NCBI GenBank assembly: GCA_949825045.1
Contig: OX463835.1
Location: 18,183,201 to 18,247,200, forward strand
DNA from: Argyresthia goedartella
Lineage: Eukaryota > Arthropoda > Insecta > Lepidoptera > Argyresthiidae
Reading direction: 5' to 3'
DNA: 64,000 bases
Position numbers and translations under genes: made by a program. Positions 6,552 through 40,160 of this stretch are shown here, piece by piece. The notes beneath the pieces are model-generated. The model searched no databases. It was not told where the DNA came from and saw only the letters and a program-made list of their open reading frames with translations. How positions within the stretch are numbered: position 1 is the stretch's first letter; every line of letters starts with the position of its first letter.

Positions 6552-6722
6552 GACATTTTAATAGGACGGACGACTGTGCGTTGCCGGCGGGCCATTGCCG
6601 ATTAACGGTATTGGTTTGACATTTTAATAGGACGGACGACTGTGCGTTGCCGGCCGGTCATAGCCGATTAACGGTATTGGTGTCACACTCCGTAGGACGA
6701 CTGTGCGTTGCCGGCGAGTCAC
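6552..6722 (+). repeat. 66-bp tandem repeats in the leader of the non-LTR element
   Basis: Units starting at 6552 and 6618 are nearly identical (GACATTTTAATAGGACGGAC to ACGGTATTGG). A third, partial unit with the core GGACGACTGTGCGTTGCCGG follows at about 6694-6720. Tandem 5' repeats of this kind often act as monomer promoters in non-LTR elements (known for the class; inferred here). A (GA)n run follows at about 6727-6747. Confidence 0.85.
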
Positions 6723-6749
6723 TGACGAGAGAGAGAGAGAGAGAGAGCG

Positions 6750-8160: not shown

Positions 8161-8334
8161 AGGTTGGACAATTGAACCTGCAAGATATGGAGGACGCCAC
8201 CAAAGAGATCCGGACTCTTGCACTGGCCCACAAACTGGACCTGGTGCTAGTGCAGGAGCAATACCCCGGGTCTCCAAACATCGTGGAATGCGGCGATCAT
8301 CCCAAAGCTGGGATCGTCGTCATGAACAAGGGGA
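8151..8334 (+). pseudogene. ORF2 N-terminus (APE-type endonuclease start), truncated
   Basis: The ATG at 8151 overlaps the ORF1 stop (ATGGCAGTGA), a layout common in R1-clade elements. The peptide begins MAVKVGQLNLQDMEDATKEI and contains LDLVLVQEQYPG. This matches the first two blocks of an APE-like endonuclease (the N-x-Q and QE segments). It is cut after about 62 residues where the right copy of the 34-bp repeat begins, so the DNA-nicking and RT parts are missing. Confidence 0.7.
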
Positions 8335-8368
8335 TAGTGTTTAAACACTAAACAGCTGAGCTCCTTTG
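8335..8368. repeat. 34-bp direct repeat, right copy
   Basis: Identical to 5965-5998. From 8341 on the sequence is continuous with the minus-strand RT of the tandem array. Confidence 0.85.
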
Positions 8369-9843
8369 AATTGCGTTGCCAGCTCATTAACTGTAGGCAT
8401 TTGAAAATGAGCTCGTTGAATGGCATTGTTCAGCGGCCGCGGATCTAAACAAACTCTAATGCCGTTATTCTTCTTAGCCGCTACAACCAACGCGTTCACC
8501 CACGGTGTCGGATGACTGACCTTACGAATTACTCCTAATTGAATCATTTTATTTAATTCAGCATTCAGTCTGTCGCGCAATGCAAACGGTATCTTACGAG
8601 GCGCACAGACCACTGGTTTTATTGACTTATCGACAACAATGTGATAAACTCCTGGAATCCGGATGACCACGGGGAGAGTCAACAGCAGTATGATTTTCTT
8701 CTTCCTGATACCGATTTTCACCGGCATATGTGTTAACATGTCATCGTATAGTATCGTTGGCGGAAAACATAAGCTCTCAGGAAAACCGGTGCTGATTTTG
8801 GTGATGGCATCCACGAGCTGGGGTGTCCCTATCAGTGCAAGCGGTAAATTTCCACTAACCATACACTCACTTACATGGATAAAAAACTCTGACGAGAGCA
8901 GGAAAGATGACTCCAAACTACTTAGTCGGGTGTTGTAGTCCATGATGTCTAGGAGAATATTGAGGATCCCTTGCGTGAATGATAGTTCCTCACTCTGTGT
9001 ATTTAAGGCTTGAGTAATAAACTCGATGTTATGTTGTAAAGTAGCGGCAGTGTCATTGATATGTCGCTGTGTTATGCTGATACTATTAGCAAGGTTGACC
9101 AGCCCTGACTGCGTGATCTTGGTGATGGATTGGATTTTTTGATTTATGTCCATTACGAAGTCTGTTGTGGCATTGGCATGTTTCTCATCAGATTTTAACA
9201 CGTTCTCAATATCCCGAATCTGTTCATCTGTTGCCACCCCTGCGAACCAGTGATAGAACTGGCCTATAAATTCGATGGCTCTCCTCTTCCTCTTGCTAAC
9301 AAGGTTATCATTGACCCCTCTCGACGATCTGAATTTATGCCCGTGAACAGTGGTCCTTGCATTGATTGTTATCTGGTCAGGCTTCTTCGAGGCAGTGTCA
9401 TCGATAGCTAAGGTGCCCACGTATTTGTTGCCAGTCCTGTCATCCAGAATCAGCTTGAGTTTTGCCGCGTTATCACCACGCGAGTCTACACGTGAGATTC
9501 CGATTTCTTGTGGGACAAATGCTAGCCGATTTTTCCTTAATTCCAACCGATATTGGGCTGCAGACTGCGATTGGCGTAGCTCTTTTTCTCGGAATGAGTC
9601 CAGGAAGACACCGTCGATTAAGTTCGAAGTATCAGAACCTGTGAGGTACCGGGCATCGTTAGCTCTCAGATTAGGCTGCACGGAGACTTGTCCTATGCTG
9701 GCACCGTAAAAGTTATTTTTTGTCATGCTGCCTTTCCCGACAATATCATGGTCTGTTACCAAATTATTATCTTCGTTCTCTGTGGAGTAGTCTTTTCCCC
9801 TTTTAAATCGCCTGACTGTAGGTGCATCTTCACACAGTGACAC
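8341..9843 (-). pseudogene. Array unit 1: env-RT frame open but RT cut at the palindrome
   Basis: The env frame and the first third of RT are open for 500 codons and stop at the array edge after QLFSV. The furin-like RKRR site is intact. A private change turns DEKR into DEKH just downstream of the cleavage region. Confidence 0.85.
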
Positions 9844-11582
9844 CGGAGACCTACATGCTCTTGGGTAGACCTACCCCATACAATAATATCATCTACAAAA
9901 CTATCAACCCCTTCCAGATCCTCTAATAGCTGACGCATTTTACCATGAAATACTTCAGATGCACAATTTATTCCGTAAGGAAGTCTCAAAAATTGATATC
10001 TCCCAAAAGGTGTGCTAAATGTACAGAGATCCGCGCTAGTATCATCTATTCTCAACATCCAAAACCCAGAATTGGCATCTAAAACACTAAACAGCTGAGC
10101 TCCCTTGAATTGCGTTGCCAGCTCATTAACTGTAGGCATTTGAAAATGAGCTCGTTGAATGGCATTGTTCAGCGGCCGCGGATCTTAACAAACTCTAATG
10201 CCGTTATTCTTCTTAGCCGCTACAACCAACGCGTTCACCCACGGTGTCGGATGACTGACCTTACGAATTACTCCTAATTGAATCATTTTATTTAATTCAG
10301 CATTCAGTCTGTCGCGCAATGCCAACGGTATCTTACGAGGCGCACAGACCACTGGTTTTATTGACTTATCGACAACAATGTGATAAACTCCTGGAATCCG
10401 GATGACCACGGGGAGAGTCAACAGCAGTATGATTTTCTTCTTCCTGATACCGATTTTCACCGGCATATGTGTTCACATGTCATCGTATAGTATCGTTGGC
10501 GGAAAACATAAGCTCTCAGGAAAACCGGTGCTGATTTTGGTGATGGCATCCACGAGCTGGGGTTTCCCTATCAGTGCAAGCGGTAAATTTCCACTAACCA
10601 TACACTCACTTACATGGATAAAAAACTCTGACGAGAGCAGGAAAGATGACTCCAAACTACTTAGTCGGGTGTTGTAGTCCATGATGTCTAGGAGAATATA
10701 GAGGATCCCTTGCGTGAATGATAGTTCCTCACTCTGTGTATTTAAGGCTTGAGTAATAAACTCGATGTTATGTTGTAAAGTAGCGGCAGTGTCATTGATA
10801 TGTCGCTGTGTTATGCTGATACTATTAGCAAGGTTGACCAGCCCTGACTGCGTGATCTTGGTGATGGATTGGATTTTTTGATTTATGTCCATTACGAAGT
10901 CTGTTGTGGCATTGGCACGTTTCTCATCAGATTTTAACACGTTCTCAATATCCCGAATCTGTTCATCTGTTGCCACCCCTGCGAACCAGTGATAGAACTG
11001 GCCTATAAATTCGATGGCTCTCCTCTTCCTCTTGCTAACAAGGTTATCATTGACCCCTCTCGACGATCTGAATTTATGCCCGTGAACAGTGGTCCTTGCA
11101 TTGATTGTTATCTGGTCAGGCTTCTTCGAGGCAGTGTCATCGATAGCTAAGGTGCCCACGTATTTGTTGCCAGTCCTGTCATCCAGAATCAGCTTGAGTT
11201 TTGCCGCGTTATCACCACGCGAGTCTACACGTGAGATTCCGATTTCTTGTGGGACAAATGCTAGCCAATTTTTCCTTAATTCCAACCGATATTGGGCTGC
11301 AGACTGCGATTGGCGTAGCTCTTTTTCTCGGAATGAGTCCAGGAAGACACCGTCGATTATGTTCGAAGTATAAGAACCTGTGAGGTACCTGGCATCGTTA
11401 GCTCTCAGATTAGGCTGCACGGAGACTTGTCCTATGCTGGCACCGTAAAAGTTATTTTTTGTCATGCTGCCTTTCCCGACAATATCATGGTCTGTTACCA
11501 AATTATTATCTTCGTTCTCTGTGCAGTAGTCTTTTCCCCTTTTAAATCGCCTGACTGTAGGTGCATCTTCACACAGTGACAC
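9844..11582 (-). pseudogene. Array unit 2: two nonsense changes
   Basis: A TGA ends the env frame after ILYDDM (near 10470). A TAA in RT after GIRVC (near 10182) is caused by one changed base. RT is otherwise the native type, with LDAN in motif A. Confidence 0.85.
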
Positions 11583-13320
11583 CGGAGACCTACATGCTCT
11601 TGGGTAGACCTACCCCATACAATAATATCATCTACAAAACTATCAACCCCTTCCAGATCCTCTAATAGCTGACGCATTTAACCATGAAATACTTCAGATG
11701 CACAATTTATTCCGAAAGGAAGTCTCAAAAATTGATATCTCCCAAAAGGTGTGCTAAATGTACAGAGATCCGCGCTAGTATCATCTATTCTCAACATCCA
11801 AAACCCAGAATTGGCATCTAAAACACTAAACAGCTGAGCTCCTTTGAATTGCGTTGCCAGCTCATTAACTGTAGGCATTTGAAAATGAGCTCGTTGAATG
11901 GCATTGTTCAGCGGCCGCGGATCTAAACAAACTCTAATGCCGTTATTCTTCTTAGCCGCTACAACCAACGCGTTCACCCACGGTGTCGGATGACTGACCT
12001 TACGAATTACTCCTAATTGAATCATTTTATTTAATTCAGCATTCAGTCTGTCGCGCAATGCAAACGGTATCTTACGAGGCGCACAGACCACTGGTTTTAT
12101 TGACTTATCGACAACAATGTGATAAACTCCTGGAATCCGGATGACCACGGGGAGAGTCAACAGCAGTATGATTTTCTTCTTCCTGATACCGATTTTCACC
12201 GGCATATGTGTTAACATGTCATCGTATAGTATCGTTGGCGGAAAACATAAGCTCTCAGGAAAACCCGTGCTGATTTTGGTGATGGCATCCACGAGCTGGG
12301 GTGTCCCTATCAGTGCAAGCGGTAAATTTCCACTAACCATACACTCACTTACATGGATAAAAAACTCTGACGAGAGCAGGAAAGACGACTCCAAACTACT
12401 TAGTCGGGTGTTGTAGTCCATGATGTCTAGGAGAATATTGAGGATCCCTTGCGTGAATGATAGTTCCTCACTCTGTGATTTAAGGCTTGAGTAATAAACT
12501 CGATGTTATGTTGTAAAGTAGCGGCAGTGTCATTGATATGTCGCTGTGTTATGCTGATACTATTAGCAAGGTTGACCAGCCCTGACTGCGTGATCTTGGT
12601 GATGGATTGGATTTTTTGATTTATGTCCATTACGAAGTCTGTTGTGGCATTGGCACGTTTCTCATCAGATTTTAACACGTTCTCAATATCCCGAATCTGT
12701 TCATCTGTTGCCACCCCTGCGAACCAGTGATAGAACTGGCCTATAAATTCGATGGCTCTCCTCTTCCTCTTGCTAACAAGGTTATCATTGACCCCTCTCG
12801 ACGATCTGAATTTATGCCCGTGAACAGTGGTCCTTGCATTGATTGTTATCTGGTCAGGCTTCTTCGAGGCAGTGTCATCGATAGCTAAGGTGCCCACGTA
12901 TTTGTTGCCAGTCCTGTCATCCAGAATCAGCTTGAGTTTTGTCGCGTTATCACCACGCGAGTCTACACATGAGATTCCGATTTCTTGTGGGACAAATGCT
13001 AGCCGATTTTTCCTTAATTCCAACCGATATTGGGCTGCAGTCTGCGATTGGCGTAGCTCTTTTTCTCGGAATGAGTCCAGGAAGACACCGTCGATTAAGT
13101 TCGAAGTATCAGAACCTGTGAGGTACCTGGCATCGTTAGCTCTCAGATTAGGCTGCACGGAGACTTGTCCTATGCTGGCACCGTAAAAGTTATTTTTTGT
13201 CATGCTGCCTTTCCCGACAATATCATGGTCTGTTACCAAATTATTATCTTCGTTCTCTGTGGAGTAGTCTTTTCCCCTTTTAAATCGCCTGACTGTAGGT
13301 GCATCTTCACACAGTGACAC
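11583..13320 (-). pseudogene. Array unit 3: env frameshift and RT stop
   Basis: One base is missing near 12477 in the env segment, ending the frame shortly after. The RT carries a TAA after VFHG (near 11677), a stop shared with units 13 to 15 or their immediate neighbours. Confidence 0.85.
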
Positions 13321-15058
13321 CGGAGACCTACATGCTCTTGGGTAGACCTACCCCATACAATAATATCATCTACAAAACTATCAACCCCTTCCAGATCCTC
13401 TAATAGCTGACGCATTTTACCATGAAATACTTCAGATGCACAATTTATTCCGTAAGGAAGTCTCAAAAATTGATATCTCCCAAAAGGTGTGCTAAATGTA
13501 CAGAGATCCGCGCTAGTATCATCTATTCTCAACATCCAAAACCCAGAATTGGCATCTAAAACACTAAACAGCTGAGCTCCCTTGAATTGCGTTGCCAGCT
13601 CATTAACTGTAGGCATTTGAAAATGAGCTCGTTGAATGGCATTGTTCAGCGGCCGCGGATCTAAACAAACTCTAATGCCGTTATTCTTCTTAGCCGCTAC
13701 AACCAACGCGTTCACCCACGGTGTCGGATGACTGACCTTACGAATTACTCCTAATTGAATCATTTTATTTAATTCAGCATTCAGTCTGTCGCGCAATGCA
13801 AACGGTATCTTACGAGGCGCACAGACCACTGGTTTTATTGACTTATCGACAACAATGTGATAAACTCCTGGAATCCGGCTGACCACGGGGAGAGTCAACA
13901 GCAGTATGATTTTCTTCTTCCTGATACCGATTTTCACCGGCATATGTGTTAACATGTCATCGTATAGTATCGTTGGCGGAAAACATAAGCTCTCAGGAAA
14001 ACCGGTGCTGATTTTGGTGATGGCATCCACGAGCTGGGGTGTCCCTATCAGTGCAAGCGGTAAATTTCCACTAACCATACACTCACTTACATGGATAAAA
14101 AACTCTGACGAGAGCAGGAAAGATGACTCCAAACTACTTAGTCGGGTGTTGTAGTCCATGATGTCTAGGAGAATATTGAGGATCCCTTGCGTGAATGATA
14201 GTTCCTCACTCTGTGTATTTAAGGCTTGAGTAATAAACTCGATGTTATGTTGTAAAGTAGCGGCAGTGTCATTGATATGTCGCTGTGTTATGCTGATACT
14301 ATTAGCAAGGTTGACCAGCCCTGACTGCGTGATCTTGGTGATGGATTGGATTTTTTGATTTATGTCCATTACGAAGTCTGTTGTGGCATTGGCACGTTTC
14401 TCATCAGATTTTAACACGTTCTCAATATCCCGAATCTGTTCATCTGTTGCCACCCCTGCGAACCAGTGATAGAACTGGCCTATAAATTCGATGGTTCTCC
14501 TCTTCCTCTTGCTAACAAGGTTATCATTGACCCCTCTCGACGATCTGAATTTATGCCCGTGAACAGTGGTCCTTGCATTGATTGTTATCTGGTCAGGCTT
14601 CTTCGAGGCAGTGTCATCGATAGCTAAGGTGCCCACGTATTTGTTGCCAGTCCTGTCATCCAGAATCAGCTTGAGTTTTGCCGCGTTATCACCACGCGAG
14701 TCTACACGTGAGATTCCGATTTCTTGTGGGACAAATGCTAGCCGATTTTTCCTTAATTCCAACCGATATTGGCTGCAGACTGCGATTGGCGTAACTCTTT
14801 TTCTCGGAATGAGTCCAGGAAGACACCGTCGATTAAGTTCGAAGTATCAGAACCTGTGAGGTACCTGGCATCGTTAGCTCTCAGATTAGGCTGCACGGAG
14901 ACTTGTCCTATGCTGGCACCGTAAAAGTTATTTTTTGTCATGCTGCCTTTCCCGACAATATCATGGTCTGTTACCAAATTATTATCTTCGTTCTCTGTGG
15001 AGTAGTCTTTTCCCCTTTTAAATCGCCTGACTGTAGGTGCATCTTCACACAGTGACAC
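13321..15058 (-). pseudogene. Array unit 4: one-base deletion in env; twin of unit 7
   Basis: A single G is missing near 14771 (GATATTGGCTGC instead of GATATTGGGCTGC). The frame downstream is open for 509 codons from an internal start. The unit shares this deletion, KRKRRTIE at the cleavage site and VVSRIPG at junction B with unit 7. Confidence 0.85.
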
Positions 15059-16797
15059 CGGAGACCTACATGCTCTTGGGTAGACCTACCCCATACAATA
15101 ATATCATCTACAAAACTATCAACCCCTTCCAGATCCTCTAATAGCTGACGCATTTTACCATGAAATACTTCAGATGCACAATTTATTCCGTAAGGAAGTC
15201 TCAAAAATTGATATCTCCCAAAAGGTGTGCTAAATGTATAGAGATCCGCGCTAGTATCATCTATTCTCAACATCCAAAACCCAGAATTGGCTTCTAAAAC
15301 ACTAAACAGCTGAGCTCCCTTGAATTGCGTTGCCAGCTCATTAACTGTAGGCATTTGAAAATGAGCTCGTTGAATGGCATTGTTCAGCGGCCGCGGATCT
15401 AAACAAACTCTAATGCCGTTATTCTTCTTAGCCGCTACAACCAACGCGTTCACCCACGGTGTCGGATGACTGACCTTACGAATTACTCCTAATTGAATAA
15501 TTTTATTTAATTCAGCATTCAGTCTGTCGCGCAATGCAAACGGTATCTTACGAGGCGCACATACCACTGGTTTTATTGACTTATCGACAACAATGTGATA
15601 AACTCCTGGAATCCGGATGACCACGGGGAGAGTCAACAGCAGTATGATTTTCTTCTTCCTGATACCGATTTTCACCGGCATATGTGTTAACATGTCATCG
15701 TATAGTATCGTTGGCGGAAAACATAAGCTCTCAGGAAAACCGGTGCTGATTTTGGTGATGGCATCCACGAGCTGGGGTGTCCCTATCAGTGCAAGCGGTA
15801 AATTTCCACTAACCATACACTCACTGACATGGATAAAAAACTCTGACGAGAGCAGGAAAGATGACTCCAAACTACTTAGTCGGGTGTTGTAGTCCATGAT
15901 GTCTAGGATAATATTGAGGATCCCTTGCGTGACTGATAGTTCCTCACTCTGTGTATTTAAGGCTTGAGTAATAAACTCGATGTTATGTTGTAAAGTAGCG
16001 GCAGTGTCATTGATATGTCGCTGTGTTATGCTGATACTATTAGCAAGGTTGACCAGCCCTGACTGCGTGATCTTGGTGATGGATTGGATTTTTTGATTTA
16101 TGTCCATTACGAAGTCTGTTGTGGCATTGGCACGTTTCTCATCAGATTTTAACACGTTCTCAATATCCCGAATCTGTTCATCTGTTGCCACCCCTGCGAA
16201 CCAGTGATAGAACTGGCCTATAAATTCGATGGCTCTCCTCTTCCTCTTGCTAACAAGGTTATCATTGACCCCTCTCGACGATCTGAATTTATGCCCGTGA
16301 ACAGTGGTCCTTGCATTGATTGTTATCTGGTCAGGCTTCTTCGAGGCAGTGTCATCGATAGCTAAGGTGCCCACGTATTTGTTGCCAGTCCTGTCATCCA
16401 GAATCAGCTTGAGTTTTGTCGCGTTATCACCACGCGAGTCTACACGTCAGATTCCGATTTCTTGTGGGACAAATGCTAGCCGATTTTTCCTTAATTCCAA
16501 CCGATATTGGGCTGCAGACTGCGATTGGCGTAGCTCTTTTTCTCGGAATGAGTCCAGGAAGACACCGTCGATTAAGTTCGAAGTATCAGAACCTGTGAGG
16601 TACCTGGCATCGTTAGCTCTCAGATTAGGCTGCACGGAGACTTGTCCTATGCTGGCACCGTAAAAGTTATTTTTTGTCATGCTGCCTTTCCCGACAATAT
16701 CATGGTCTGTTACCAAATTATTATCTTCGTTCTCTGTGGAGTAGTCTTTTCCCCTTTTAAATCGCCTGACTGTAGGTGCATCTTCACACAGTGACAC
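15059..16797 (-). pseudogene. Array unit 5: early env stop; RT motif A changed
   Basis: A TGA interrupts env at about 16447 (codon after GI of EIGI). The rest is open, with NKIIQ in the RT and LEAN in place of LDAN, so the motif A aspartate is glutamate. Confidence 0.85.
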
Positions 16798-18536
16798 CGG
16801 AGACCTACATGCTCTTGGGTAGACCTACCCCATACAATAATATCATCTACAAAACTATCAACCCCTTCCAGATCCTCTAATAGCTGACGCATTTTACCAT
16901 GAAATACTTCAGATGCACAATTTATTCCGTAAGGAAGTCTCAAAAATTGATATCTCCCAAAAGGTGTGCTAAATGTATAGAGATCCGCGCTAGTATCATC
17001 TATTCTCAACATCCAAAACCCAGAATTGGCATCTAAAACACTAAACAGCTGAGCTCCCTTGAATTGCGTTGCCAGCTCATTAACTGTAGGCATTTGAAAA
17101 TGAGCTCGTTGAATGGCATTGTTCAGCGGCCGCGGATCTAAACAAACTCTAATGCCGTTATTCTTCTTAGCCGCTACAACCAACGCGTTCACCCACGGTG
17201 TCGGATGACTGACCTTACGAATTACTCCTAATTGAATCATTTTATTTAATTCAGCATTCAGTCTGTCGCGCAATGCAAACGGTATCTTACGAGGCGCACA
17301 GACCACTGGTTTTATTGACTTATCGACAACAATGTGATAAACTCCTGGAATCCGGCTGACCACGGGGAGAGTCAACAGCAGTATGATTTTCTTCTTCCTG
17401 ATACCGATTTTCACCGGCATATGTGTTAACATGTCATCGTATAGTATCGTTGGCGGAAAACATAAGCTCTCAGGAAAACCGGTGCTGATTTTGGTGATGG
17501 CATCCACGAGCTGGGGTGTCCCTATCAGTGCAAGCGGTAAATTTCCACTAACCATACACTCACTTACATGGATAAAAAACTCTGACGAGAGCAGGAAAGA
17601 TGACTCCTAACTACTTAGTCGGGTGTTGTAGTCCATGATGTCTAGGAGAATATTGAGGATCCCTTGCGTGAATGATAGTTCCTCACTCTGTGTATTTAAG
17701 GCTTGAGTAATAAACTCGATGTTATGTTGTAAAGTAGCGGCAGTGTCATTGATATGTCGCTGTGTTATGCTGATACTATTAGCAAGGTTGACCAGCCCTG
17801 ACTGCGTGATCTTGGTGATGGATTGGATTTTTTGATTTATGTCCATTACGAAGTCTGTTGTGGCATTGGCACGTTTCTCATCAGATTTTAACACGTTCTC
17901 AATATCCCGAATCTGTTCATCTGTTGCCACCCCTGCGAACCAGTGATAGAACTGGCCTATAAATTCGATGGCTCTCCTCTTCCTCTTGCTAACAAGGTTA
18001 TCATTGACCCCTCTCGACGATCTGAATTTATGCCCGTGAACAGTGGTCCTTGCATTGATTGTTATCTGGTCAGGCTTCTTCGAGGCAGTGTCATCGATAG
18101 CTAAGGTGCCCACGTATTTGTTGCCAGTCCTGTCATCCAGAATCAGCTTGAGTTTTGCCGCGTTATCACCACGCGAGTCTACACGTGAGATTCCGATTTC
18201 TTGTGGGACAAATGCTAGCCGATTTTTCCTTAATTCCAACCGATATTGGGCTGCAGACTGCGATTGGCGTAGCTCTTTTTCTCGGAATGAGTCCAGGAAA
18301 ACACCGTCGATTAAGTTCGAAGTATCAGAACCTGTGAGGTACCTGGCATCGTTAGCTCTCAGATTAGGCTGCACGGAGACTTGTCCTATGCTGGCACCGT
18401 AAAAGTTATTTTTTGTCATGCTGCCTTTCCCGACAATATCATGGTCTGTTACCAAATTATTATCTTCGTTCTCTGTGGAGTAGTCTTTTCCCCTTTTAAA
18501 TCGCCTGACTTTAGGTGCATCTTCACACAGTGACAC
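16798..18536 (-). pseudogene. Array unit 6: TAG in env
   Basis: One changed base makes a TAG in the LSSLESS segment near 17608. Further markers are KVRRF near the env start (shared with unit 16), VVSRIPG at junction B, and LDAN with LYTF in RT. Confidence 0.85.
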
Positions 18537-20274
18537 CGGAGACCTACATGCTCTTGGGTAGACCTACCCCATACAATAATATCATCTACAAAACTATCAA
18601 CCCCTTCCAGATCCTCTAATAGCTGACGCATTTTACCATGAAATACTTCAGATGCACAATTTATTCCGTAAGGAAGTCTCAAAAATTGATATCTCCCAAA
18701 AGGTGTGCTAAATGTACAGAGATCCGCGCTAGTATCATCTATTCTCAACATCCAAAACCCAGAATTGGCATCTAAAACACTAAACAGCTGAGCTCCCTTG
18801 AATTGCGTTGCCAGCTCATTAACTGTAGGCATTTGAAAATGAGCTCGTTGAATGGCATTGTTCAGCGGCCGCGGATCTAAACAAACTCTAATGCCGTTAT
18901 TCTTCTTAGCCGCTACAACTAACGCGTTCACCCACGGTGTCGGATGACTGACCTTACGAATTACTCCTAATTGAATCATTTTATTTAATTCAGCATTCAG
19001 TCTGTCGCGCAATGCAAACGGTATCTTACGAGGCGCACAGACCACTGGTTTTATTGACTTATCGACAACAATGTGATAAACTCCTGGAATCCGGCTGACC
19101 ACGGGGAGAGTCAACAGCAGTATGATTTTCTTCTTCCTGATACCGATTTTCACCGGCATATGTGTTAACATGTCATCGTATAGTATCGTTGGCGGAAAAC
19201 ATAAGCTCTCAGGAAAACCGGTGCTGATTTTGGTGATGGCATCCACGAGCTGGGGTGTCCCTATCAGTGCAAGCGGTAAATTTCCACTAACCATACACTC
19301 ACTTACATGGATAAAAAACTCTGACGAGAGCAGGAAAGATGACTCCAAACTACTTAGTCGGGTGTTGTAGTCCATGATGTCTAGGAGAATATTGAGGATC
19401 CCTTGCGTGAATGATAGTTCCTCACTCTGTGTATTTAAGGCTTGAGTAATAAACTCGATGTTATGTTGTAAAGTAGCGGCAGTGTCATTGATATGTCGCT
19501 GTGTTATGCTGATACTATTAGCAAGGTTGACCAGCCCTGACTGCGTGATCTTGGTGATGGATTGGATTTTTTGATTTATGTCCATTACGAAGTCTGTTGT
19601 GGCATTGGCACGTTTCTCATCAGATTTTAACACGTTCTCAATATCCCGAATCTGTTCATCTGTTGCCACCCCTGCGAACCAGTGATAGAACTGGCCTATA
19701 AATTCGATGGTTCTCCTCTTCCTCTTGCTAACAAGGTTATCATTGACCCCTCTCGACGATCTGAATTTATGCCCGTGAACAGTGGTCCTTGCATTGATTG
19801 TTATCTGGTCAGGCTTCTTCGAGGCAGTGTCATCGATAGCTAAGGTGCCCACGTATTTGTTGCCAGTCCTGTCATCCAGAATCAGCTTGAGTTTTGCCGC
19901 GTTATCACCACGCGAGTCTACACGTGAGATTCCGATTTCTTGTGGGACAAATGCTAGCCGATTTTTCCTTAATTCCAACCGATATTGGCTGCAGACTGCG
20001 ATTGGCGTAACTCTTTTTCTCGGAATGAGTCCAGGAAGACACCGTCGATTAAGTTCGAAGTATCAGAACCTGTGAGGTACCTGGCATCGTTAGCTCTCAG
20101 ATTAGGCTGCACGGAGACTTGTCCTATGCTGGCACCGTAAAAGTTATTTTTTGTCATGCTGCCTTTCCCGACAATATCATGGTCTGTTACCAAATTATTA
20201 TCTTCGTTCTCTGTGGAGTAGTCTTTTCCCCTTTTAAATCGCCTGACTGTAGGTGCATCTTCACACAGTGACAC
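18537..20274 (-). pseudogene. Array unit 7: same deletion and markers as unit 4
   Basis: It carries the same one-base env deletion (near 19987), KRKRRTIE and VVSRIPG as unit 4, exactly three units (5,216 bp) away. A private change alters MHLQSGD to MHLKSGD in the out-of-frame tail. Confidence 0.85.
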
Positions 20275-28967: not shown

Positions 28968-30702
28968 CGGAGACCTACATGCTCTTGGGTAGACCTACCC
29001 CATACAATAATATCATCTACAAAACTATCAACCCCTTCCAGATCCTCTAATAGCTGACGCATTTAACCATGAAATACTTCAGATGCACAATTTATTCCGT
29101 AAGGAAGTCTCAAAAATTGATATCTCCCAAAAGGTGTGCTAAATGTACAGAGATCCGCGCTAGTATCATCTATTCTCAACATCCAAAACCCAGAATTGGC
29201 ATCTAAAACACTAAACAGCTGAGCTCCTTTGAATTGCGTTGCCAGCTCATTAACTGTAGGCATTTGAAAATGAGCTCGTTGAATGGCATTGTTCAGCGGC
29301 CGCGGATCTAAACAAACTCTAATGCCGTTATTCTTCTTAGCCGCTACAACCAACGCGTTCACCCACGGTGTCGGATGACTGACCTTACGAATTACTCCTA
29401 ATTGAATCATTTTATTTAATTCAGCATTCAGTCAGTCGCGCAATGCAAACGGTATCTTACGAGGCGCACAGACCACTGGTTTTATTGACTTATCGACAAC
29501 AATGTGATAAACTCCTGGAATCCGGATGACCACGGGGAGAGTCAACAGCAGTATGATTTTCTTCTTCCTGATACCGATTTTCACCGGCATATGTGTTAAC
29601 ATGTCATCGTATAGTATCGTTGGCGGAAAACATAAGCTCTCAGGAAAACCGGTGCTGATTTTGGTGATGGCATCCACGAGCTGGGGTGTCCCTATCAGTG
29701 CAAGCGGTAAATTTCCACTAACCATACACTCACTTACATGGATAAAAAACTGACGAGAGCAGGAAAGATGACTCCAAACTACTTAGTCGGGTGTTGTAGT
29801 CCATGATGTCTAGGAGAATATTGAGGATCCCTTGCGTGAATGATAGTTCCTCACTCTGTGTATTTAAGGCTTGAGTAATAAACTCGATGTTATGTTGTAA
29901 AGTAGCGGCAGTGTCATTGATATGTCGCTGTGTTATGCTGATACTATTAGCAAGGTTGACCAGCCCTGACTGCGTGATCTTGGTGATGGATTGGATTTTT
30001 TGATTTATGTCCATTACGAAGTCTGTTGTGGCATTGGCACGTTTCTCATCAGATTTTAACACGTTCTCAATATCCCGAATCTGTTCATCTGTTGCCACCC
30101 CTGCGAACCAGTGATAGAACTGGCCTATAAATTCGATGGCTCTCCTCTTCCTCTTGCTAACAAGGTTATCATTGACCTCTCGACGATCTGAATTTATGCC
30201 CGTGAACAGTGGTCCTTGCATTGATTATTATCTGGTCAGGCTTCTTCGAGGCAGTGTCATCGATAGCTAAGGTGCCCACGTATTTGTTGCCAGTCCTGTC
30301 ATCCAGAATCAGCTTGAGTTTTGCCGCGTTATCACCACGCGAGTCTACACGTGAGATTCCGATTTCTTGTGGGACAAATGCTAGCCGATTTTTCCTTAAT
30401 TCCAACCGATATTGGGCTGCAGACTGCGATTGGCGTAGCTCTTTTTCTCGGAATGAGTCCAGGAAGACACCGTCGATTAAGTTCGAAGTATCAGAACCTG
30501 TGAGGTACCTGGCATCGTTAGCTCTCAGATTAGGCTGCACGGAGACTTGTCCTATGCTGGCACCGTAAAAGTTATTTTTTGTCATGCTGCCTTTCCCGAC
30601 AATATCATGGTCTGTTACCAAATTATTATCTTCGTTCTCTGTGGAGTAGTCTTTTCCCCTTTTAAATCGCCTGACTGTAGGTGCATCTTCACACAGTGAC
30701 AC
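28968..30702 (-). pseudogene. Array unit 13: two env deletions, two RT stops
   Basis: It has the same CT deletion (near 29751) and LRD-TGA (near 29433) as unit 12. It adds a further two-base deletion near 30176 just upstream of the cleavage site and the TAA after VFHG near 29063. This is the shortest unit, at 1,735 bp. Confidence 0.85.
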
Positions 30703-32441
30703 CGGAGACCTACATGCTCTTGGGTAGACCTACCCCATACAATAATATCATCTACAAAACTATCAACCCCTTCCAGATCCTCTAATAGCTGACGCATTTA
30801 ACCATGAAATACTTCAGATGCACAATTTATTCCGTAAGGAAGTCTCAAAAATTGATATCTCCCAAAAGGTGTGCTAAATGTACAGAGATCCGCGCTAGTA
30901 TCATCTATTCTCAACATCCAAAACCCAGAATTGGCATCTAAAACACTAAACAGCTGAGCTCCTTTGAATTGCGTTGCCAGCTCATTAACTGTAGGCATTT
31001 GAAAATGAGCTCGTTGAATGGCATTGTTCAGCGGCCGCGGATCTAAACAAACTCTAATGCCGTTATTCTTCTTAGCCGCTACAACCAACGCGTTCACCCA
31101 CGGTGTCGGATGACTGACCTTACGAATTACTCCTAATTGAATCATTTTATTTAATTCAGCATTCAGTCTGTCGCGCAATGCAAACGGTATCTTACGAGGC
31201 GCACAGACCACTGGTTTTATTGACTTATCGACAACAATGTGATAAACTCCTGGAATCCGGATGACCACGGGGAGAGTCAACAGCAGTATGATTTTCTTCT
31301 TCCTGATACCGATTTTCACCGGCATATGTGTTAACATGTCATCGTATAGTATCGTTGGCGGAAAACATAAGCTCTCAGGAAAACCGGTGCTGATTTTGGT
31401 GATGGCATCCACGAGCTGGGGTGTCCCTATCAGTGCAAGCGGTAAATTTCCACTAACCATACACTCACTTAAATGGATAAAAAACTCTGACGAGAGCAGG
31501 AAAGATGACTCCAAACTACTTAGTCGGGTGTTGTAGTCCATGATGTCTAGGAGAATATTGAGGATCCCTTGCGTGAATGATAGTTCCTCACTCTGTGTAT
31601 TTAAGGCTTGAGTAATAAACTCGATGTTATGTTGTAAAGTAGCGGCAGTGTCATTGATATGTCGCTGTGTTATGCTGATACTATTAGCAAGGTTGACCAG
31701 CCCTGACTGCGTGATCTTGGTGATGGATTGGATTTTTTGATTTATGTCCATTACGAAGTCTGTTGTGGCATTGGCACGTTTCTCATCAGATTTTAACACG
31801 TTCTCAATATCCCGAATCTGTTCATCTGTTGCCACCCCTGCGAACCAGTGATAGAACTGGCCTATAAATTCGATGGCTCTCCTCTTCCTCTTGCTAACAA
31901 GGTTATCATTGACCCCTCTCGACGATCTGAATTTATGCCCGTGAACAGTGGTCCTTGCATTGATTGTTATCTGGTCAGGCTTCTTCGAGGCAGTGTCATC
32001 GATAGCTAAGGTGCCCACGTATTTGTTGCCAGTCCTGTCATCCAGAATCAGCTTGAGTTCTGCCGCGTTATCACCACGCGAGTCTACACGTGAGATTCCG
32101 ATTTCTTGTGGGACAAATGCTAGCCGATTTTTCCTTAAGTCCAACCGATATTGGGCTGCAGACTGCGATTGGCGTAGCTCTTTTTCTCGGAATGAGTCCA
32201 GGAAGACACCGTCGATTAAGTTCGAAGTATCAGAACCTGTGAGGTACCTGGCATCGTTAGCTCTCAGATTAGGCTGCACGTAGACTTGTCCTATGCTGGC
32301 ACCGTAAAAGTTATTTTTTGTCATGCTGCCTTTCCCGACAATATCATGGTCTGTTACCAAATTATTATCTTCGTTCTCTGTGGAGTAGTCTTTTCCCCTT
32401 TTAAATCGCCTGACTGTAGGTGCATCTTCACACAGTGACAC
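30703..32441 (-). pseudogene. Array unit 14: open to a stop just before RT motif C
   Basis: The frame runs 547 codons, then stops at TAA after VFHG (near 30796), so the FVDD motif is not reached. FIHLSEC, LDAN and LCTF are present. SVQP is changed to YVQP, a change also seen in unit 17. Confidence 0.8.
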
Positions 32442-34180
32442 CGGAGACCTACATGCTCTTGGGTAGACCTACCCCATACAATAATATCATCTACAAAACT
32501 ATCAACCCCTTCCAGATCCTCTAATAGCTGACGCATTTAACCATGAAATACTTCAGATGCACAATTTATTCCGTAAGGACGTCTCAAAAATTGATTTCTC
32601 CCAAAAGGTGTGCTAAATGTACAGAGATCCGCGCTAGTATCATCTATTCTCAACATCCAAAACCCAGAATTGGCATCTAAAACACTAAACAGCTGAGCTC
32701 CTTTGAATTGCGTTGCCAGCTCATTAACTGTAGGCATTTGAAAATGAGCTCGTTGAATGGCATTGTTCAGCGGCCGCGGATCTAAACAAACTCTAATGCC
32801 GTTATTCTTCTTAGCCGCTACAACCAACGCGTTCACCCACGGTGTCGGATGACTGACCTTACAAATTACTCCTAATTGAATCATTTTATTTAATTCAGCA
32901 TTCAGTCTGTCGCGCAATGCAAACGGTATCTTACGAGGCGCACAGACCACTGGTTTTATTGACTTATCGACAACAATGTGATAAACTCCTGGAATCCGGA
33001 TGACCACGGGGAGAGTCAACAGCAGTATGATTTTCTTCTTCCTGATACCGATTTTCACCGGCATATGTGTTAACATGTCATCGTATAGTATCGTTGGCGG
33101 AAAACATAAGCTCTCAGGAAAACCGGTGCTGATTTTGGTGATGGCATCCACGAGCTGGGGTGTCCCTATCAGTGCAAGCGGTAAATTTCCACTAACCATA
33201 CACTCACTTAAATGGATAAAAAACTCTGACGAGAGCAGGAAAGATGACTCCAAACTACTTAGTCGGGTGTTGTAGTCCATGATGTCTAGGAGAATATTGA
33301 GGATCCCTTGCGTGAATGATAGTTCCTCACTCTGTGTATTTAAGGCTTGAGTAATAAACTCGATGTTATGTTGTAAAGTAGCGGCAGTGTCATTGATATG
33401 TCGCTGTGTTATGCTGATACTATTAGCAAGGTTGACCAGCCCTGACTGCGTGATCTTGGTGATGGATTGGATTTTTTGATTTATGTCCATTACGAAGTCT
33501 GTTGTGGCATTTGCACGTTTCTCATCAGATTTTAACACGTTCTCAATATCCCGAATCTGTTCATCTGTTGCCACCCCTGCGAACCAGTGATAGAACTGGC
33601 CTATAAATTCGATGGCTCTCCTCTTCCTCTTGCTAACAAGGTTATCATTGACCCCTCTCGACGATCTGAATTTATGCCCGTGAACAGTGGTCCTTGCATT
33701 GATTGTTATCTGGTCAGGCTTCTTCGAGGCAGTGTCATCGATAGCTAAGGTGCCCACGTATTTGTTGCCAGTCCTGTCATCCAGAATCAGCTTGAGTTTT
33801 GCCGCGTTATCACCACGCGAGTCTACACGTGAGATTCCGATTTCTTGTGGGACAAATGCTAGCCGATTTTTCCTTAATTCCAACCGATATTGGGCTGCAG
33901 ACTGCGATTGGCGTAGCTCTTTTTCTCGGAATGAGTCCAGGAAGACACCGTCGATTAAGTTCGAAGTATCAGAACCTGTGAGGTACCTGGCATCGTTAGC
34001 TCTCAGATTAGGCTGCACGGAGACTTGTCCTATGCTGGCACCGTAAAAGTTATTTTTTGTCATGCTGCCTTTCCCGACAATATCATGGTCTGTTACCAAA
34101 TTATTATCTTCGTTCTCTGTGGAGTAGTCTTTTCCCCTTTTAAATCGCCTGACTGTAGGTGCATCTTCACACAGTGACAC
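32442..34180 (-). pseudogene. Array unit 15: as unit 14, with RT missense changes
   Basis: It runs 547 codons to the same VFHG-TAA stop (near 32536). RT has VICKV for VIRKV and RNQFLRRP for RYQFLRLP, which suggests no purifying constraint on this copy. Confidence 0.8.
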
Positions 34181-35919
34181 CGGAGACCTACATGCTCTTG
34201 GGTAGACCTACCCCATACAATAATATCATCTACAAAACTATCAACCCCTTCCAGATCCTCTAATAGCTGACGCATTTTACCATGAAATACTTCAGATGCA
34301 CAATTTATTCCGTAAGGAAGTCTCAAAAATTGATATCTCCCAAAAGGTGTGCTAAATGTACAGAGATCCGCGCTAGTATCATCTATTCTCAACATCCAAA
34401 ACCCAGAATTGGCATCTAAAACACTAAACAGCTGAGCTCCCTTGAATTGCGTTGCCAGCTCATTAACTGTAGGCATTTGAAAATGAGCTCGTTGAATGGC
34501 ATTGTTCAGCGGCCGCGGATCTAAACAAACTCTAATGCCGTTATTCTTCTTAGCCGCTACAACCAACGCGTTCACCCACGGTGTCGGATGACTGACCTTA
34601 CGAATTACTCCTAATTGAATCATTTTATTTAATTCAGCATTCAGTCAGTCGCGCAATGCAAACGGTATCTTACGAGGCGCACAGACCACTGGTTTTATTG
34701 ACTTATCGACAACAATGTGATAAACTCCTGGAATCCGGATGACCACGGGGAGAGTCAACAGCAGTATGATTTTCTTCTTCCTGATACCGATTTTCACCGG
34801 CATATGTGTTAACATGTCATCGTATAGTATCGTTGGCGGAAAACATAAGCTCTCAGGAAAACCGGTGCTGATTTTGGTGATGGCATCCACGAGCTGGGGT
34901 GTCCCTATCAGTGCAAGCGGTAAATTTCCACTAACCATACACTCACTTACATGGATAAAAAACTCTGACGAGAGCAGGAAAGATGACTCCAAACTACTTA
35001 GTCGGGTGTTGTAGTCCATGATGTCTAGGATAATATTGAGGATCCCTTGCGTGACTGATAGTTCCTCACTCTGTGTATTTAAGGCTTGAGTAATAAACTC
35101 GATGTTATGTTGTAAAGTAGCGGCAGTGTCATTGATATGTCGCTGTGTTATGCTGATACTATTAGCAAGGTTGACCAGCCCTGACTGCGTGATCTTGGTG
35201 ATGGATTGGATTTTTTGATTTATGTCCATTACGAAGTCTGTTGTGGCATTGGCACGTTTCTCATCAGATTTTAACACGTTCTCAATATCCCGAATCTGTT
35301 CATCTGTTGCCACCCCTGCGAACCAGTGATAGAACTGGCCTATAAATTCGATGGCTCTCCTCTTCCTCTTGCTAACAAGGTTATCATTGACCCCTCTCGA
35401 CGATCTGAATTTATGCCCGTGAACAGTGGTCCTTGCATTGATTGTTATCTGGTCAGGCTTCTTCGAGGCAGTGTCATCGATAGCTAAGGTGCCCACGTAT
35501 TTGTTGCCAGTCCTGTCATCCAGAATCAGCTTGAGTTTTGCCGCGTTATCACCACACGAGTCTACACGTGAGATTCCGATTTCTTGTGGGACAAATGCTA
35601 GCCGATTTTTCCTTAATTCCAACCGATATTGGGCTGCAGACTGCGATTGGCGTAGCTCTTTTTCTCGGAATGAGTCCAGGAAGACACCGTCGATTAAGTT
35701 CGAAGTATCAGAACCTGTGAGGTACCTGGCATCGTTAGCTCTCAGATTAGGCTGCACGGAGACTTGTCCTATGCTGGCACCGTAAAAGTTATTTTTTGTC
35801 ATGCTGCCTTTCCCGACAATATCATGGTCTGTTACCAAATTATTATCTTCGTTCTCTGTGGAGTAGTCTTTTCCCCTTTTAAATCGCCTGACTTTAGGTG
35901 CATCTTTACACAGTGACAC
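34181..35919 (-). pseudogene. Array unit 16: stop at the start of RT
   Basis: Env is open for 424 codons to the LRD-TGA near 34646, the same change as in units 12 and 13. It carries KVRRF like unit 6 and LSVTQGILNIILD like units 5 and 9. Confidence 0.85.
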
Positions 35920-36272
35920 CGGAGACCTACATGCTCTTGGGTAGACCTACCCCATACAATAATATCATCTACAAAACTATCAACCCCTTCCAGATCCTCT
36001 AATAGCTGACGCATTTTACCATGAAATACTTCAGATGCACAATTTATCCCGTAAGGAAGTCTCAAAAATTGATATCTCCCAAAAGGTGTGCTAAATGTAC
36101 AGAGATCCGCGCTAGTATCATCTATTCTCAACATCCAAAACCCAGAATTGGCATCTAAAACTCTAAACAGCTGAGCTCCCTTGAATTGCGTTGCCAGCTC
36201 ATTAACTGTAGGCATTTGAAAATGAGCTCGTTGAATGGCATTGTTCAGCGGCCGCGGATCTAAACAAACTCT

Positions 36273-38006
36273 CAATCAAATCAATCAATCAAACAAAAAT
36301 CATTTATTTCCATATGATGTTGTTACATCACTTAGATCCGTCATTACATTTTTTTGGGTGAGTTCACTAACCCAATGGCGGAATCTGTGGAGAAGAGCTC
36401 ACCGAAGAAACTCCACAGTCGTCGCATCTTTTGCGTTTCCTTTTTTAAATAAAATATTGTCAAATTACAAAATGAATGCTAATTATATATCGAAACAGCC
36501 TGTTACTCAAACAATCTATTCCCATGGACATCTGTCCTCTAAGTAATCAGATATCCTGTAGTAACCTTTTTTATACAATTTCTGTTTTATTATTATTTTG
36601 AACTTGTCTAAAGGTAAATTTTTAATATCAGTAGGGACCTTATTGTAATAGCGTATACAATTGCCTTTAAAAGAATTACTAATTTTATGTAGTCGGCTTA
36701 CATAAGCAACCAACTTGTCTTTATTTCTAGTATTAAAATTGTGTATATCACTGTACTTCTGAAAATTAGTTATATTTCTTTTTACATACACAAGATTGTC
36801 ATAGATATATTGAGACACAAATGTCAGAATATTGATTTCTTTAAACTTTTCCCTCAGTGACACTCTAGGCCCTAATCTATAAATTGCACGAACAGCCCGT
36901 TTCTGCAGAATAAATATACTATTAGCATTCGCAGCGTGACCCCACAATAAAATACCATAGGTCATTAGACTATAAAAGTAACTAAAGTAGACTAGTCTAG
37001 CGGTGTCTACGTCGGTAAGAGCTCTAATTTTTTTAACTGCGAACGCTGCCGAACTCAGTCTGTTCGACAATTTATTTATATGAGGATCCCATTGTAGTTT
37101 GGCGTCTAAAGTAATGCCCAAAAAGACAGTCGACTGCACAAGGTCCAATCTCTGTCCTTTTATAAATATGTCTGTAGTTACCGGGTTCACATTGGGTAAC
37201 ACGAATTTAATACATTTAGTTTTCTTTTCATTAAGTAATAAATTGTTAACAGTAAACCAGTTCACTATACTAGAGATAGCATTGTTTACCTCGTCATAAT
37301 TTGATTGCTGTCTTTTAACTTTAAATATCAAAGAAGTATCATCGGCAAACAATACTAACCCATGTTTTGCTTTAACAAGGTAAGGTAAATCATTAATATA
37401 TACTAAAAACAAGAAAGGTCCAAGAATTGAACCTTGCGGTACGCCCATACTTATTGAAGACCCAGGTGATCTTTTCCCATTAACATCGACCATCTGAACC
37501 CTATCTGTTAGATATGACTCCAGAAGGCCAAGTGCCTGATCTTTTACACCATAATGGCGTAACTTCCTGACAAGAGTGTCATGATGGACGCAATCAAAAG
37601 CCTTGGATAGATCGCAGAAGACACCTATTGCATCCATTGCGTCTTCCCAGGCATCAAAAATATTGTCGATTAGTTCAACACCAGCATCGGCTGTTGAACG
37701 ACCCTTTGTGAAACCAAACTGAGCAATATGAATTAAATTATTGAGATAAAAATGACTGCAATTGATTAAGTATGAGTTTTTCAAATATTTTGCTAAGCGT
37801 TGGTAGTATCGATATGGGTCTAAAATTGGTGGGGTCTGATGTACTACCAGCTTTGAATAAAGGTATAACTTTACTTAGTTTCATCAAGTCAGGAAACACA
37901 CCACTATCTATACATTGATTAAATATACAACAAAGGTGAGGTGCAATACAATCTACAATGGAACTAATAATTTTTACTGATAGACCATGGGCGTCAGCTG
38001 TCTTTG
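36273..38006 (-). mobile_element. 5'-truncated Jockey/CR1-type non-LTR retrotransposon inside array unit 17
   Basis: The 1,734-bp insert has its 3' end at the left, with a simple-repeat tail (ATTG/TTTG units) next to 36273. It is cut at the 5' side within ORF2 at 38006. The codons TCT border both sides. It occurs in one unit only, so it entered after the array had formed. Confidence 0.85.
36516..38006 (-). pseudogene. Non-LTR RT ORF2, C-terminal two thirds
   Basis: This is RT of the Jockey/CR1 group. From 38006 down, fragments resembling RPISILPTLSKIFEKLI lead by a frameshift near 37785 into a 422-codon open frame. The frame holds FTKGRSTADA, FCDLSKAFDCV (motif A), GVPQGSILGPFLF (motif B) and LVLFADDTSLIF (motif C, FADD). 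A thumb/C-terminal region follows and ends SDYLEDRCPWE at 36516. The endonuclease is missing. The remaining RT core looks intact, pointing to a fairly recent insertion. Confidence 0.85.
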
Positions 38007-39394
38007 TCTAATGCCGTTATTCTTCTTAGCCGCTACTACCAACGCGTTCACCCACGGTGTCGGATGACTGACCTTACGAATTACTCCTCATTGAATCATT
38101 TTATTTAATTCAGCATTCAGTCTGTCGCGCAATGTAAACGGTATCTTACGAGGCGCACAGACCACTGGTTTTATTGACTTATCGACAACAATGTGATAAA
38201 CTCCTGGAATCCGGATGACCACGGGGAGAGTCAACAGCAGTATGATTTTCTTCTTCCTGATACCGATTTTCACCGGCATATGTGTTAACATGTCATCGTA
38301 TAGTATAGTTGGCGGAAAACATAAGCTCTCAGGAAAACCGGTGCTGATTTTGGTGATGGCATCCACGAGCTGGGGTGTCCCTATCAGTGCAAGCGGTAAA
38401 TTTCCACTAACCATACACTCACTTACATGGATAAAAAACTCTGACGAGAGCAGGAAAGATGACTCCAAACTACTTAGTCGGGTGTTGTAGTCCATGATGT
38501 CTAGGAGAATATTGAGGATCCCTTGCGTGAATGATAGTTCCTCACTCTGTGTATTTAAGGCTTGAGTAATAAACTCGATGTTATGTTGTAAAGTAGCGGC
38601 AGTGTCATTGATATGTCGCTGTGTTATGCTGATACTATTAGCAAGGTTGACCAGCCCTGACTGCGTGATCTTGGTGATGGATTGGATTTTTTGATTTATG
38701 TCCATTACGAAGTCTGTTGTGGCATTGGCACGTTTCTCATCAGATTTTAACACGTTCTCAATATCCCGAATCTGTTCATCTGTTGCCACCCCTGCGAACC
38801 AGTGATAGAACTGGCCTATAAATTCGATGGCTCTCCTCTTCCTCTTGCTAACAAGGTTATCATTGACCCCTCTCGACGATCTGAATTTATGCCCGTGAAC
38901 AGTGGTCCTTGCATTGATTGTTATCTGGTCAGGCTTCTTCGAGGCAGTGTCATCGATAGCTAAGGTGCCCACGTATCTGTTGCCAGTCCTGTCATCCAGA
39001 ATCAGCTTGAGTTTTGCCGCGTTATCACCACGCGAGTCTACACGTGAGATTCCGATTTCTTGTGGGACAAATGCTAGCCGATTTTTCCTTAATTCCAACC
39101 GATATTGGGCTGCAGACTGCGATTGGCGTAGCTCTTTTTCTCGGAATGAGTCCAGGAAGACACCGTCGATTAAGTTCGAAGTATCAGAACCTGTGAGGTA
39201 CCTGGCATCGTTTGCTCTCAGATTAGGCTGCACGTAGACTTGTCCTATGCTGGCACCGTAAAAGTTATTTTTTGTCATGCTGCCTTTCCCGACAATATCA
39301 TGGTCTGTTACCAAATTATTATCTTCGTTCTCTGTGGAGTAGTCTTTTCCCTTTTAAATCGCCTGACTGTAGGTGCATCTTCACACAGTGACAC

Positions 39395-40056
39395 CGGAGA
39401 CCTACATGCTCTTGGGTAGACCTACCCCATACAATAATATCATCTACAAAACTATCAACCCCTTCCAGATCCTCTAATAGCTGACGCATTTTACCATGAA
39501 ATAATTCAGATGCACAATTTATTCCGTAAGGAAGTCTCAAAAATTGATATCTCCCAAAAGGTGTGCTAAATGTACAGAGATCCGCGCTAGTATCATCTAT
39601 TCTCAACATCCAAAACCCAGAATTGGCATCTAAAACACTAAACAGCTGAGCTCCCTTGAATTGCGTTGCCAGCTCATTAACTGTAGGCATTTGAAAATGA
39701 GCTCGTTGAATGGCATTGTTCAGCGGCCGCGGATCTAAACAAACTCTAATGCCGTTATTCTTCTTAGCCGCTGCAACCAACGCGTTCACCCACGGTGTCG
39801 GATGACTGACCTTACGAATTACTCCTAATTGAATCATTTTATTTAATTCAGCATTCAATCTGTCGCGCAATGCAAACGGTATCTTACGAGGCCCACAGAC
39901 CACTGGTTTTATTGACTTATCGACAACAATGTGATAAACTCCTGGAAGGCAACCCAACCCGTGAAATAGGTCCGAATATTCATTAACGTTTACCGAATTC
40001 ATTCGACTTACTAATAATCCCAATGATTCACATGCATACTTTCCCAGTACGCTTTC
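39395..40056 (-). pseudogene. Right-hand cap of the array: native gypsy protease-RT linker joined to RT
   Basis: On the minus strand the sequence from 40056 codes for the end of the protease region (NCESVLGKYACESLG), a linker (SDLFHGLGCLPGVYH) and RT up to GRSTQEH, then enters unit 17. This is the only array RT whose upstream side is native gypsy rather than env. It therefore marks the 5' edge of the founding element and sets the unit's start at PGVYH. The left truncation is at CACAATT, next to a CTCGAG-rich repeat. Confidence 0.85.
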
Positions 40057-40160
40057 ACAATTAGGGTTTCTCATTTCTCGACCTTTTTCATTTCTCGAGT
40101 CACGAGAATTCTCGACCCCAAACTCTCGAGAATTCTCGACTTTTCGAGAAATAATTTATA
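40057..40160. repeat. CTCGAG/GAATTCTCG short inverted repeats at the array's right edge
   Basis: The motifs TTTCTCGA, CGAGAATTCTCGA and CTCGAGAATTCTCGAC recur within about 90 bp in both orientations, directly against the truncated gypsy sequence. They may be the foldback that helped end the array or an unrelated minisatellite. Confidence 0.6.

What the first reader, a model, noticed from the sequence alone, without database searches (positions are those of the whole stretch)
8341..40056. A 30-kb tandem array of an env-RT chimera, 17 units of 1,739 bp
Tandem arrays are usually made of satellite DNA, LTR monomers or gene copies. Here the unit is a chimera of an envelope-like segment and a gypsy RT segment, placed env before RT, the reverse of retroviral order. 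Flanking sequence fixes both breakpoints: RT is cut after GRSTQEH, and env is joined to RT at PGVYH. The right edge alone keeps the native protease-RT linker. The simplest history is an internal deletion joining RT to env, then tandem duplication of that piece.
Basis: partly seen in the sequence, partly recalled or inferred. Interest (0 to 1): 0.85.

Follow-up and report, generated by a model that had tools for sequence, protein, structure and literature searches.

The report
Envelope fragment trapped in amplified retrotransposon
In a moth or butterfly genome, a piece of a virus-like envelope gene lies between two copies of a jumping gene's polymerase segment, and this sandwich has multiplied into a long, decaying tandem repeat; a distant relative of the same envelope gene sits in the same kind of sandwich, in a different jumping gene, elsewhere in the genome.

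Summary
The array is real: 15 complete units of 1,735-1,739 bp, one unit split by a LINE and two partial units in the window (17.2 unit equivalents, 8343-39947). The array continues 30 kb to the left, and at its true left end (C30:18155110) RT runs natively past GRSTQEH (333/341 identical to another copy). The locus reads native-RT543-(env-RT543)x20-native: an RT duplication around an env piece, then amplified. Nineteen of 19 other fetched RT copies are native there; env searches found this env otherwise only as 45-64% aa relatives on C15 and a 51% fragment on C5. On C15 it again alternates with a repeated segment (about 1.06 kb) of a different gypsy family, with native continuation. Changes look neutral (16 of 67 synonymous, about 23% expected). 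Neighbouring units are most alike and private variants concentrate towards the ends, as unequal exchange predicts. A TE-derived, satellite-like array; the repeated env sandwich is the unusual part.

The parts
8343..9755 (-). Partial unit (unit positions 327-1739): right-hand part of array unit 4, whose left part lies at C30:18161531-18161856
9756..35831 (-). Fifteen complete head-to-tail units of 1,735-1,739 bp
25502..26044 (-). RT segment (543 bp) of one representative unit, PGVYH to GRSTQEH; no RNase H or integrase
26045..27240 (-). env-like segment (1,196 bp) of one representative unit, with the Baculo_F-matching stretch; furin-like RRFKR and RKRR motifs, and the lack of a signal peptide and membrane anchor, read by eye
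35832..36276 (-). First part of array unit 20, interrupted by a non-LTR element
36277..38006 (-). Non-LTR element (RVT_1) inserted in unit 20; judged 5'-truncated from its length
38007..39307 (-). Second part of array unit 20
39308..39947 (-). Terminal unit piece carrying the last RT copy, with its native upstream join
39948..40062 (-). Native protease-RT linker: right (upstream) native flank of the array
5724..5972 (+). Inverted 249-bp copy of RT (unit positions 327-575), head to head with the array
5947..5998 (.). Perfect 52-bp palindrome at the fold-back joint
5999..8334 (+). Insertion with R1-like ORF1 and the start of ORF2 (names recalled; the ORF scanned had no Pfam match), lacking its 3' part, between 34-bp direct repeats 5965-5998 and 8335-8368
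51749..53706 (+). Separate copy of the same gypsy family (protease to RNase H), resuming at 56055 after a Tc1/mariner insertion; reference for the native RT sequence

Best explanation
Shown: the locus reads native-RT543-(env-RT543)x20-native inside a fragment of a K02A2.6-like Ty3/gypsy element. Inferred: a 543-bp RT segment was first duplicated with a 1,196-bp piece of a foreign, probably F-type, env at the joint, by a polymerase back-jump that used an env template, either at DNA level or during reverse transcription with a co-packaged env RNA. The direct repeats then let unequal exchange and gene conversion expand and homogenise the array. It shows no coding constraint now; it is a young, satellite-like array that has since been cut by two LINE-like insertions, a 29.7-kb block and a palindromic fold-back.
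For: The right end is native upstream of RT and the left end is native downstream of GRSTQEH, 333/341 identical to another copy. The pieces add up to 35,323 bp, exactly 20 x 1,739 + 543. Neither joint occurs in the 19 other fetched RT copies. Over 21 unit copies, neighbours are most alike (lag-1 P=0.005, lag-2 P=0.016), difference grows with separation (r=0.245, P=0.007), private variants concentrate towards the true ends (Spearman -0.70, P=0.0005) and 47 of 210 informative site pairs fail the four-gamete test. No sign of selection: 16 synonymous, 44 non-synonymous and 7 stop changes of 67, with about 23% synonymous expected; 4 of 15 complete units keep the whole fused frame open. The C15 locus repeats the architecture with another gypsy family.
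Against: The founding two-copy state is inferred, not seen. No parental env element was found, so microhomology at the joints cannot be scored. The native flanks are short (115 bp upstream, 341 bp downstream), because the host copy is itself a fragment. The RT tree is star-like and does not make the array RTs one clade; one array RT is identical to a dispersed copy. Neighbour similarity is not significant beyond lag 2. The C5 env fragment is not in a sandwich. Copy number rests on an assembly without reads.
Confidence: 0.68

Rival explanations
1. A chimeric extrachromosomal circle of RT543+env, possibly already multimeric by rolling-circle replication, recombined by homology into a native RT fragment; the final structure is the same.
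For: Homologous insertion of a circle into RT gives exactly RT-(env-RT)n with native flanks, as seen. A review describes rolling-circle origin and reintegration of the Bari1 clusters (PMC9659126 section 8).
Against: It needs a separate event that makes the circle with both joints. Structure alone cannot separate it from stepwise growth. Neighbour similarity and edge divergence show later exchange in either case.
Confidence: 0.2
2. One reading: an internal deletion in one pol-env element joined RT to env, and the piece was then duplicated in tandem.
For: The RT-env joint and tandem duplication exist.
Against: RT continues natively past the joint at the true left end. Nineteen of 19 other fetched RT copies show no such deletion and no env at the joint. 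The env protein search found no env linked to this RT family elsewhere. One dispersed copy was followed a further 4.2 kb and no env was found, though no integrase was recognised there either, so that copy may be truncated.
Confidence: 0.04
3. A locus kept for function: a domesticated env-RT protein gene family, or a source of small RNAs. The head-to-head 257-bp inverted repeat of RT could form a hairpin RNA against the gypsy family.
For: The env-RT fusion is in frame and 4 of 15 complete units keep it open. A perfect 257-bp inverted repeat exists (5724-5980 against 8335-8591).
Against: Substitutions fit neutrality, with more stops than expected (7 of 67 against about 4%). No expression data are at hand. 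The inverted repeat is split by 2.35 kb of other sequence.
Confidence: 0.04
4. Assembly artefact: copy number inflated or units misjoined.
For: No reads could be examined here.
Against: Units differ by private variants, two insertions and a 29.7-kb block sit in different units, and the two ends join different native flanks.
Confidence: 0.04

Closest known systems
CRM1TR/CRM4TR, maize tandem repeats derived from centromeric Ty3/gypsy elements (PMC3648361; abstract and sections 13 and 15 read)
   Same: A local tandem array made from pieces of a Ty3/gypsy element, for which the authors propose initiation by illegitimate recombination and growth by gene conversion, with later retrotransposon insertions.
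   Different: Those units are LTR-UTR pieces of one element. Here the unit is coding sequence, pol plus an env not found in that element, and the structure is a segmental duplication around an insert.
TE-derived satellite DNA in general (reviews: PMC9659126, sections 6 and 8 and passages read; PMC12628747, passages read)
   Same: ORF, gag or pol segments of elements are described there as sources of satellite monomers.
   Different: In the parts I read, no monomer combined env with pol of another element, and no case recurred with the same insert family at two loci.
Insect endogenous retroviruses with F-type env (PMC12992720 and PMC6085415, passages read)
   Same: A weak Baculo_F match and furin-like motifs in the env segment; those papers describe acquisition of F-type env as the step that made LTR elements infectious.
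   Different: Here env is an internal fragment without signal peptide or membrane anchor, placed between pol repeats.

Membership tests
TE-derived tandem repeat | Head-to-tail array of near-identical units made of TE sequence | tested here: met
TE-derived tandem repeat | Exchange between units, more divergent ends | tested here: met
   lag-1 P=0.005, Spearman -0.70 (P=0.0005), 47 of 210 site pairs fail the four-gamete test
TE-derived tandem repeat | No coding constraint | tested here: met
   18 window copies: 16 of 67 changes synonymous against about 23% expected; 7 stops
Classical satellite DNA | High abundance or several loci in the genome | tested here: not met
   (24 candidates, all scored): env of this identity only at this locus, 20 copies; so called satellite-like only
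K02A2.6-like Ty3/gypsy element (RT part) | RT closest to that named group, with dispersed native copies | tested here: met
   74% identity to a Leguminivora 'K02A2.6-like' protein; 24 places outside the array among 40 scored of 92 candidates (lower bound)
F-type (baculovirus F) envelope | Profile match above the curated cut-off | tested here: not met
   21.3 bits against 24.1, E=1.2e-4; C15 relative 20.2 bits, same profile region
F-type (baculovirus F) envelope | Furin-like site followed by fusion peptide and helical stretch | tested here: inconclusive
   RKRR|AIEFIGQFYHWFAG read by eye, largely conserved in the C15 relatives; fold prediction too poor to judge (mean pLDDT 38.3)
F-type (baculovirus F) envelope | Signal peptide and C-terminal membrane anchor | tested here: not met
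   not seen in the unit (by eye); the C5 relative has a hydrophobic start (by eye)
Insect endogenous retrovirus (errantivirus-like) | gag-pol-env between LTRs | tested here: not met
   the unit holds only RT and env pieces

The most novel reading that the evidence does not exclude
The two env sandwiches (K02A2.6-like RT on C30, another gypsy family's integrase/3' region on C15) are fossils of failed envelope capture. While an element's RNA was copied, its reverse transcriptase switched to a co-packaged env RNA and then back upstream on its own RNA, which inserts env between two copies of a pol segment. If so, the genome records the molecular step by which gypsy elements acquire env, and the long direct repeats it leaves make the products prone to tandem amplification.
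Probability: 0.18. Interest if true: 0.75.

Novelty: new variant of a known kind. Interest (0 to 1): 0.5.

Why it matters
TE-derived tandem repeats are well known, but their founding structure is rarely visible. Here both native flanks survive, so the first step can be read: a segmental duplication around a foreign insert, not a deletion. That the only other multi-copy locus found for this env family in a 1.1-Gb genome has the same architecture in another gypsy family makes a question testable: does env capture by insect retrotransposons pass through a duplicate-and-insert intermediate, and does that intermediate seed tandem arrays?

Tried and rejected
Tried without result: env protein search of the large protein set gave no relative at E<=1e-3 (7504 candidates); viral-contig search gave none; of 80 PDB sequence matches the 60 shown all fall in the RT half; structure prediction of the env piece was too poor to use (mean pLDDT 38.3, pTM 0.20), so no fold search was run. 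The RT tree is star-like and cannot say which dispersed copy was the parent. The telomere motif tested is absent from the window. No long direct repeat was found around the C5 env fragment in the 10 kb fetched, so two of three env loci have the sandwich, not all.

Rejected: internal deletion; coding gene family. The first edge statistic, which took 8343 for an array end, was replaced.

I saw no report of an env-pol chimeric tandem array in those listings or in the passages and sections read; this is no proof of absence.
Full report
What is there. One unit searched against the window gives a partial unit at 8343-9755, fifteen complete units at 9756-35831, a unit split by a 1.73-kb non-LTR insertion (35832-36276 and 38007-39307) and a terminal 640-bp piece at 39308-39947: 29,875 bp of unit sequence, 17.18 units. 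In gene orientation (minus strand) each unit is 543 bp of reverse transcriptase (PGVYH to GRSTQEH) and 1,196 bp of an env-like segment. The env end is in frame with RT; the RT end is not in frame with env.

Identity of the parts. RT matches RVT_1, and the family is closest to lepidopteran proteins named K02A2.6-like (74% identity), so the window is lepidopteran by inference. The env label is weaker: Baculo_F at E=1.2e-4, below the curated cut-off. The same profile region matches in the relative on C15 (E=2.5e-4), and a furin-like RKRR site followed by a conserved stretch is largely kept there. A search of the large protein set found no relative of env. A fold prediction failed (mean pLDDT 38.3).

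The whole locus. The window is C30:18183201-18247200 of a 1.109-Gb assembly. An env DNA search (24 candidates, all scored) finds 17 copies in the window, three more to the left at C30:18155653-18161530, and otherwise only 66-73% matches on C15. Reading that stretch (locus L024) shows the array's true left end at C30:18155110. Left of it, RT runs on past GRSTQEH natively, 333 of 341 bases identical to the window's other copy. The right end is native upstream of RT to window position 40062. The pieces add up to 35,323 bp, exactly 20 x 1,739 + 543: RT-(env-RT)x20. The array is cut at unit position 326|327 by a 29,686-bp block, in unit 3 by a 1.3-kb insertion that is LINE-like by eye and has a 6-bp duplication, and in unit 20 by the non-LTR element at 36277-38006.

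Origin. Because both outer flanks are native, no deletion is needed or seen. The simplest ancestor is native-RT543-env-RT543-native, a segmental duplication with a foreign insert at its joint. The RT family has 24 places outside the array among the 40 candidates scored of 92. Twenty loci were fetched; one is the array's own left end and one the window's other copy. The 19 apart from the array end are all native at GRSTQEH and 17 of 19 are native at the protease linker, the other two having deletions there; none carries either joint. Five of the 24 places were not fetched. One dispersed copy was followed a further 4.2 kb downstream: no env was found, but no integrase was recognised there either, so it may be truncated. 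The env protein search (104 of 105 candidates scored) finds only this array, three degenerate copies on C15 (45-64% identity) and a fragment on C5 (51%). A genome-wide pattern search for the joints was asked but not answered.

A second sandwich. On C15 the env relative repeats with a period of 2,258 bp between the two fullest copies; the third, partial copy is spaced differently, 2,552 bp. It alternates with a segment of about 1.06 kb that encodes an integrase end (starting VERWHRSL; domain read by eye, no Pfam match) and the start of a small MGGQSS reading frame. A search with that segment (26 candidates, all scored) finds six dispersed places (C24, two on C22, C23, C2, C7) that run unbroken from the segment's start past the point where env begins on C15. 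The joint on C15 is GGAGGAAA followed by env in two copies and by native sequence in the last. At the segment's other end the one native copy checked, on C24, reads ...HAQSNGQVERWHRS where C15 has env. That this is another gypsy family is shown by the places: no place lies near one, the closest pair, on C4, being over 450 kb apart; the listed RT relatives also gave no tblastn match there. The upstream end of the C15 array is truncated inside env, so its first native flank is not seen. The C5 fragment has no long direct repeats around it in the 10 kb fetched. Two of the three env loci found therefore have this architecture.

Growth and decay. Over all 21 unit copies the mean pairwise difference is 0.72%. 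Neighbours are most alike (lag-1 P=0.005, lag-2 P=0.016, not significant beyond), difference grows with separation (r=0.245, P=0.007), private variants fall with distance from the true ends (Spearman -0.70, P=0.0005; high in the first six and last two copies), and 47 of 210 informative site pairs fail the four-gamete test. This is the pattern expected of unequal exchange and conversion. In the RT part native copies differ by 1.20% from each other, array copies by 0.92%, and array from native by 1.13%, so the array is about as young as the family's recent spread (inference). Coding changes among the 18 window copies are 16 synonymous, 44 non-synonymous and 7 stops of 67, near the neutral expectation except for somewhat many stops; 4 of 15 complete units keep the whole fused frame open.

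Left break. At the right side of the 29.7-kb block lies a 249-bp inverted copy of RT, head to head with the array, with a 52-bp perfect palindrome at the joint. It is identical over 249 bp to the adjoining unit and also to two other units. A later insertion (5999-8334) with R1-like coding sequence (recalled name) lies between 34-bp direct repeats that include the palindrome centre, and lacks its 3' part. I read this as break repair by fold-back followed by capture of other DNA; that is inference.

Verdict. A real, young, neutrally decaying, TE-derived tandem array; a known kind in a new variant. The surprising element is the insertion of the same rare env family between repeated pol segments of two gypsy families. 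Whether that happened by template switching during reverse transcription, by DNA-level switching or through circles cannot be decided here.

Noticed in passing
48466-49893 (minus): A 475-aa open frame with no Pfam match; 17 relatives among 7994 scored candidates, 80% identity to a fragment and 47% to a Euphydryas editha entry named 'Capsid protein'. Probably an endogenous viral element.
   Followed up: partly
5724-8591: Fold-back: 257-bp perfect inverted repeat (5724-5980 against 8335-8591), 52-bp palindrome, and a 3'-less R1-like insertion with 34-bp direct repeats at the palindrome.
   Followed up: partly
L027 and L028 (C15:28365900-28372264): Second env sandwich: env relative alternating with an integrase/MGGQSS segment of another gypsy family, period about 2,258 bp, native continuation after the last copy.
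   Followed up: yes
C30 as a whole (25.6 Mb): 35 of the 150 listed RVT_1 matches lie on C30, against 2.3% of the bases (hand count; binomial P=8e-25). The 150 are those scored of 92,591 candidates. Possibly the W chromosome or a heterochromatic chromosome.
   Followed up: no
array RT segments against dispersed copies: Transitions to transversions are 13:20 among 21 array RTs and 39:18 among 19 native copies; the difference is unexplained.
   Followed up: no
51749-57704: Native gypsy copy split by a Tc1/mariner element (about 53707-56054, inverted ends) and followed head to head by an inverted gag-protease piece (56397-57074).
   Followed up: partly
L041 (C5:36115033-36115962): 310-aa open frame with a hydrophobic start that holds the N-terminal part of the env relative and then diverges.
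   Followed up: partly
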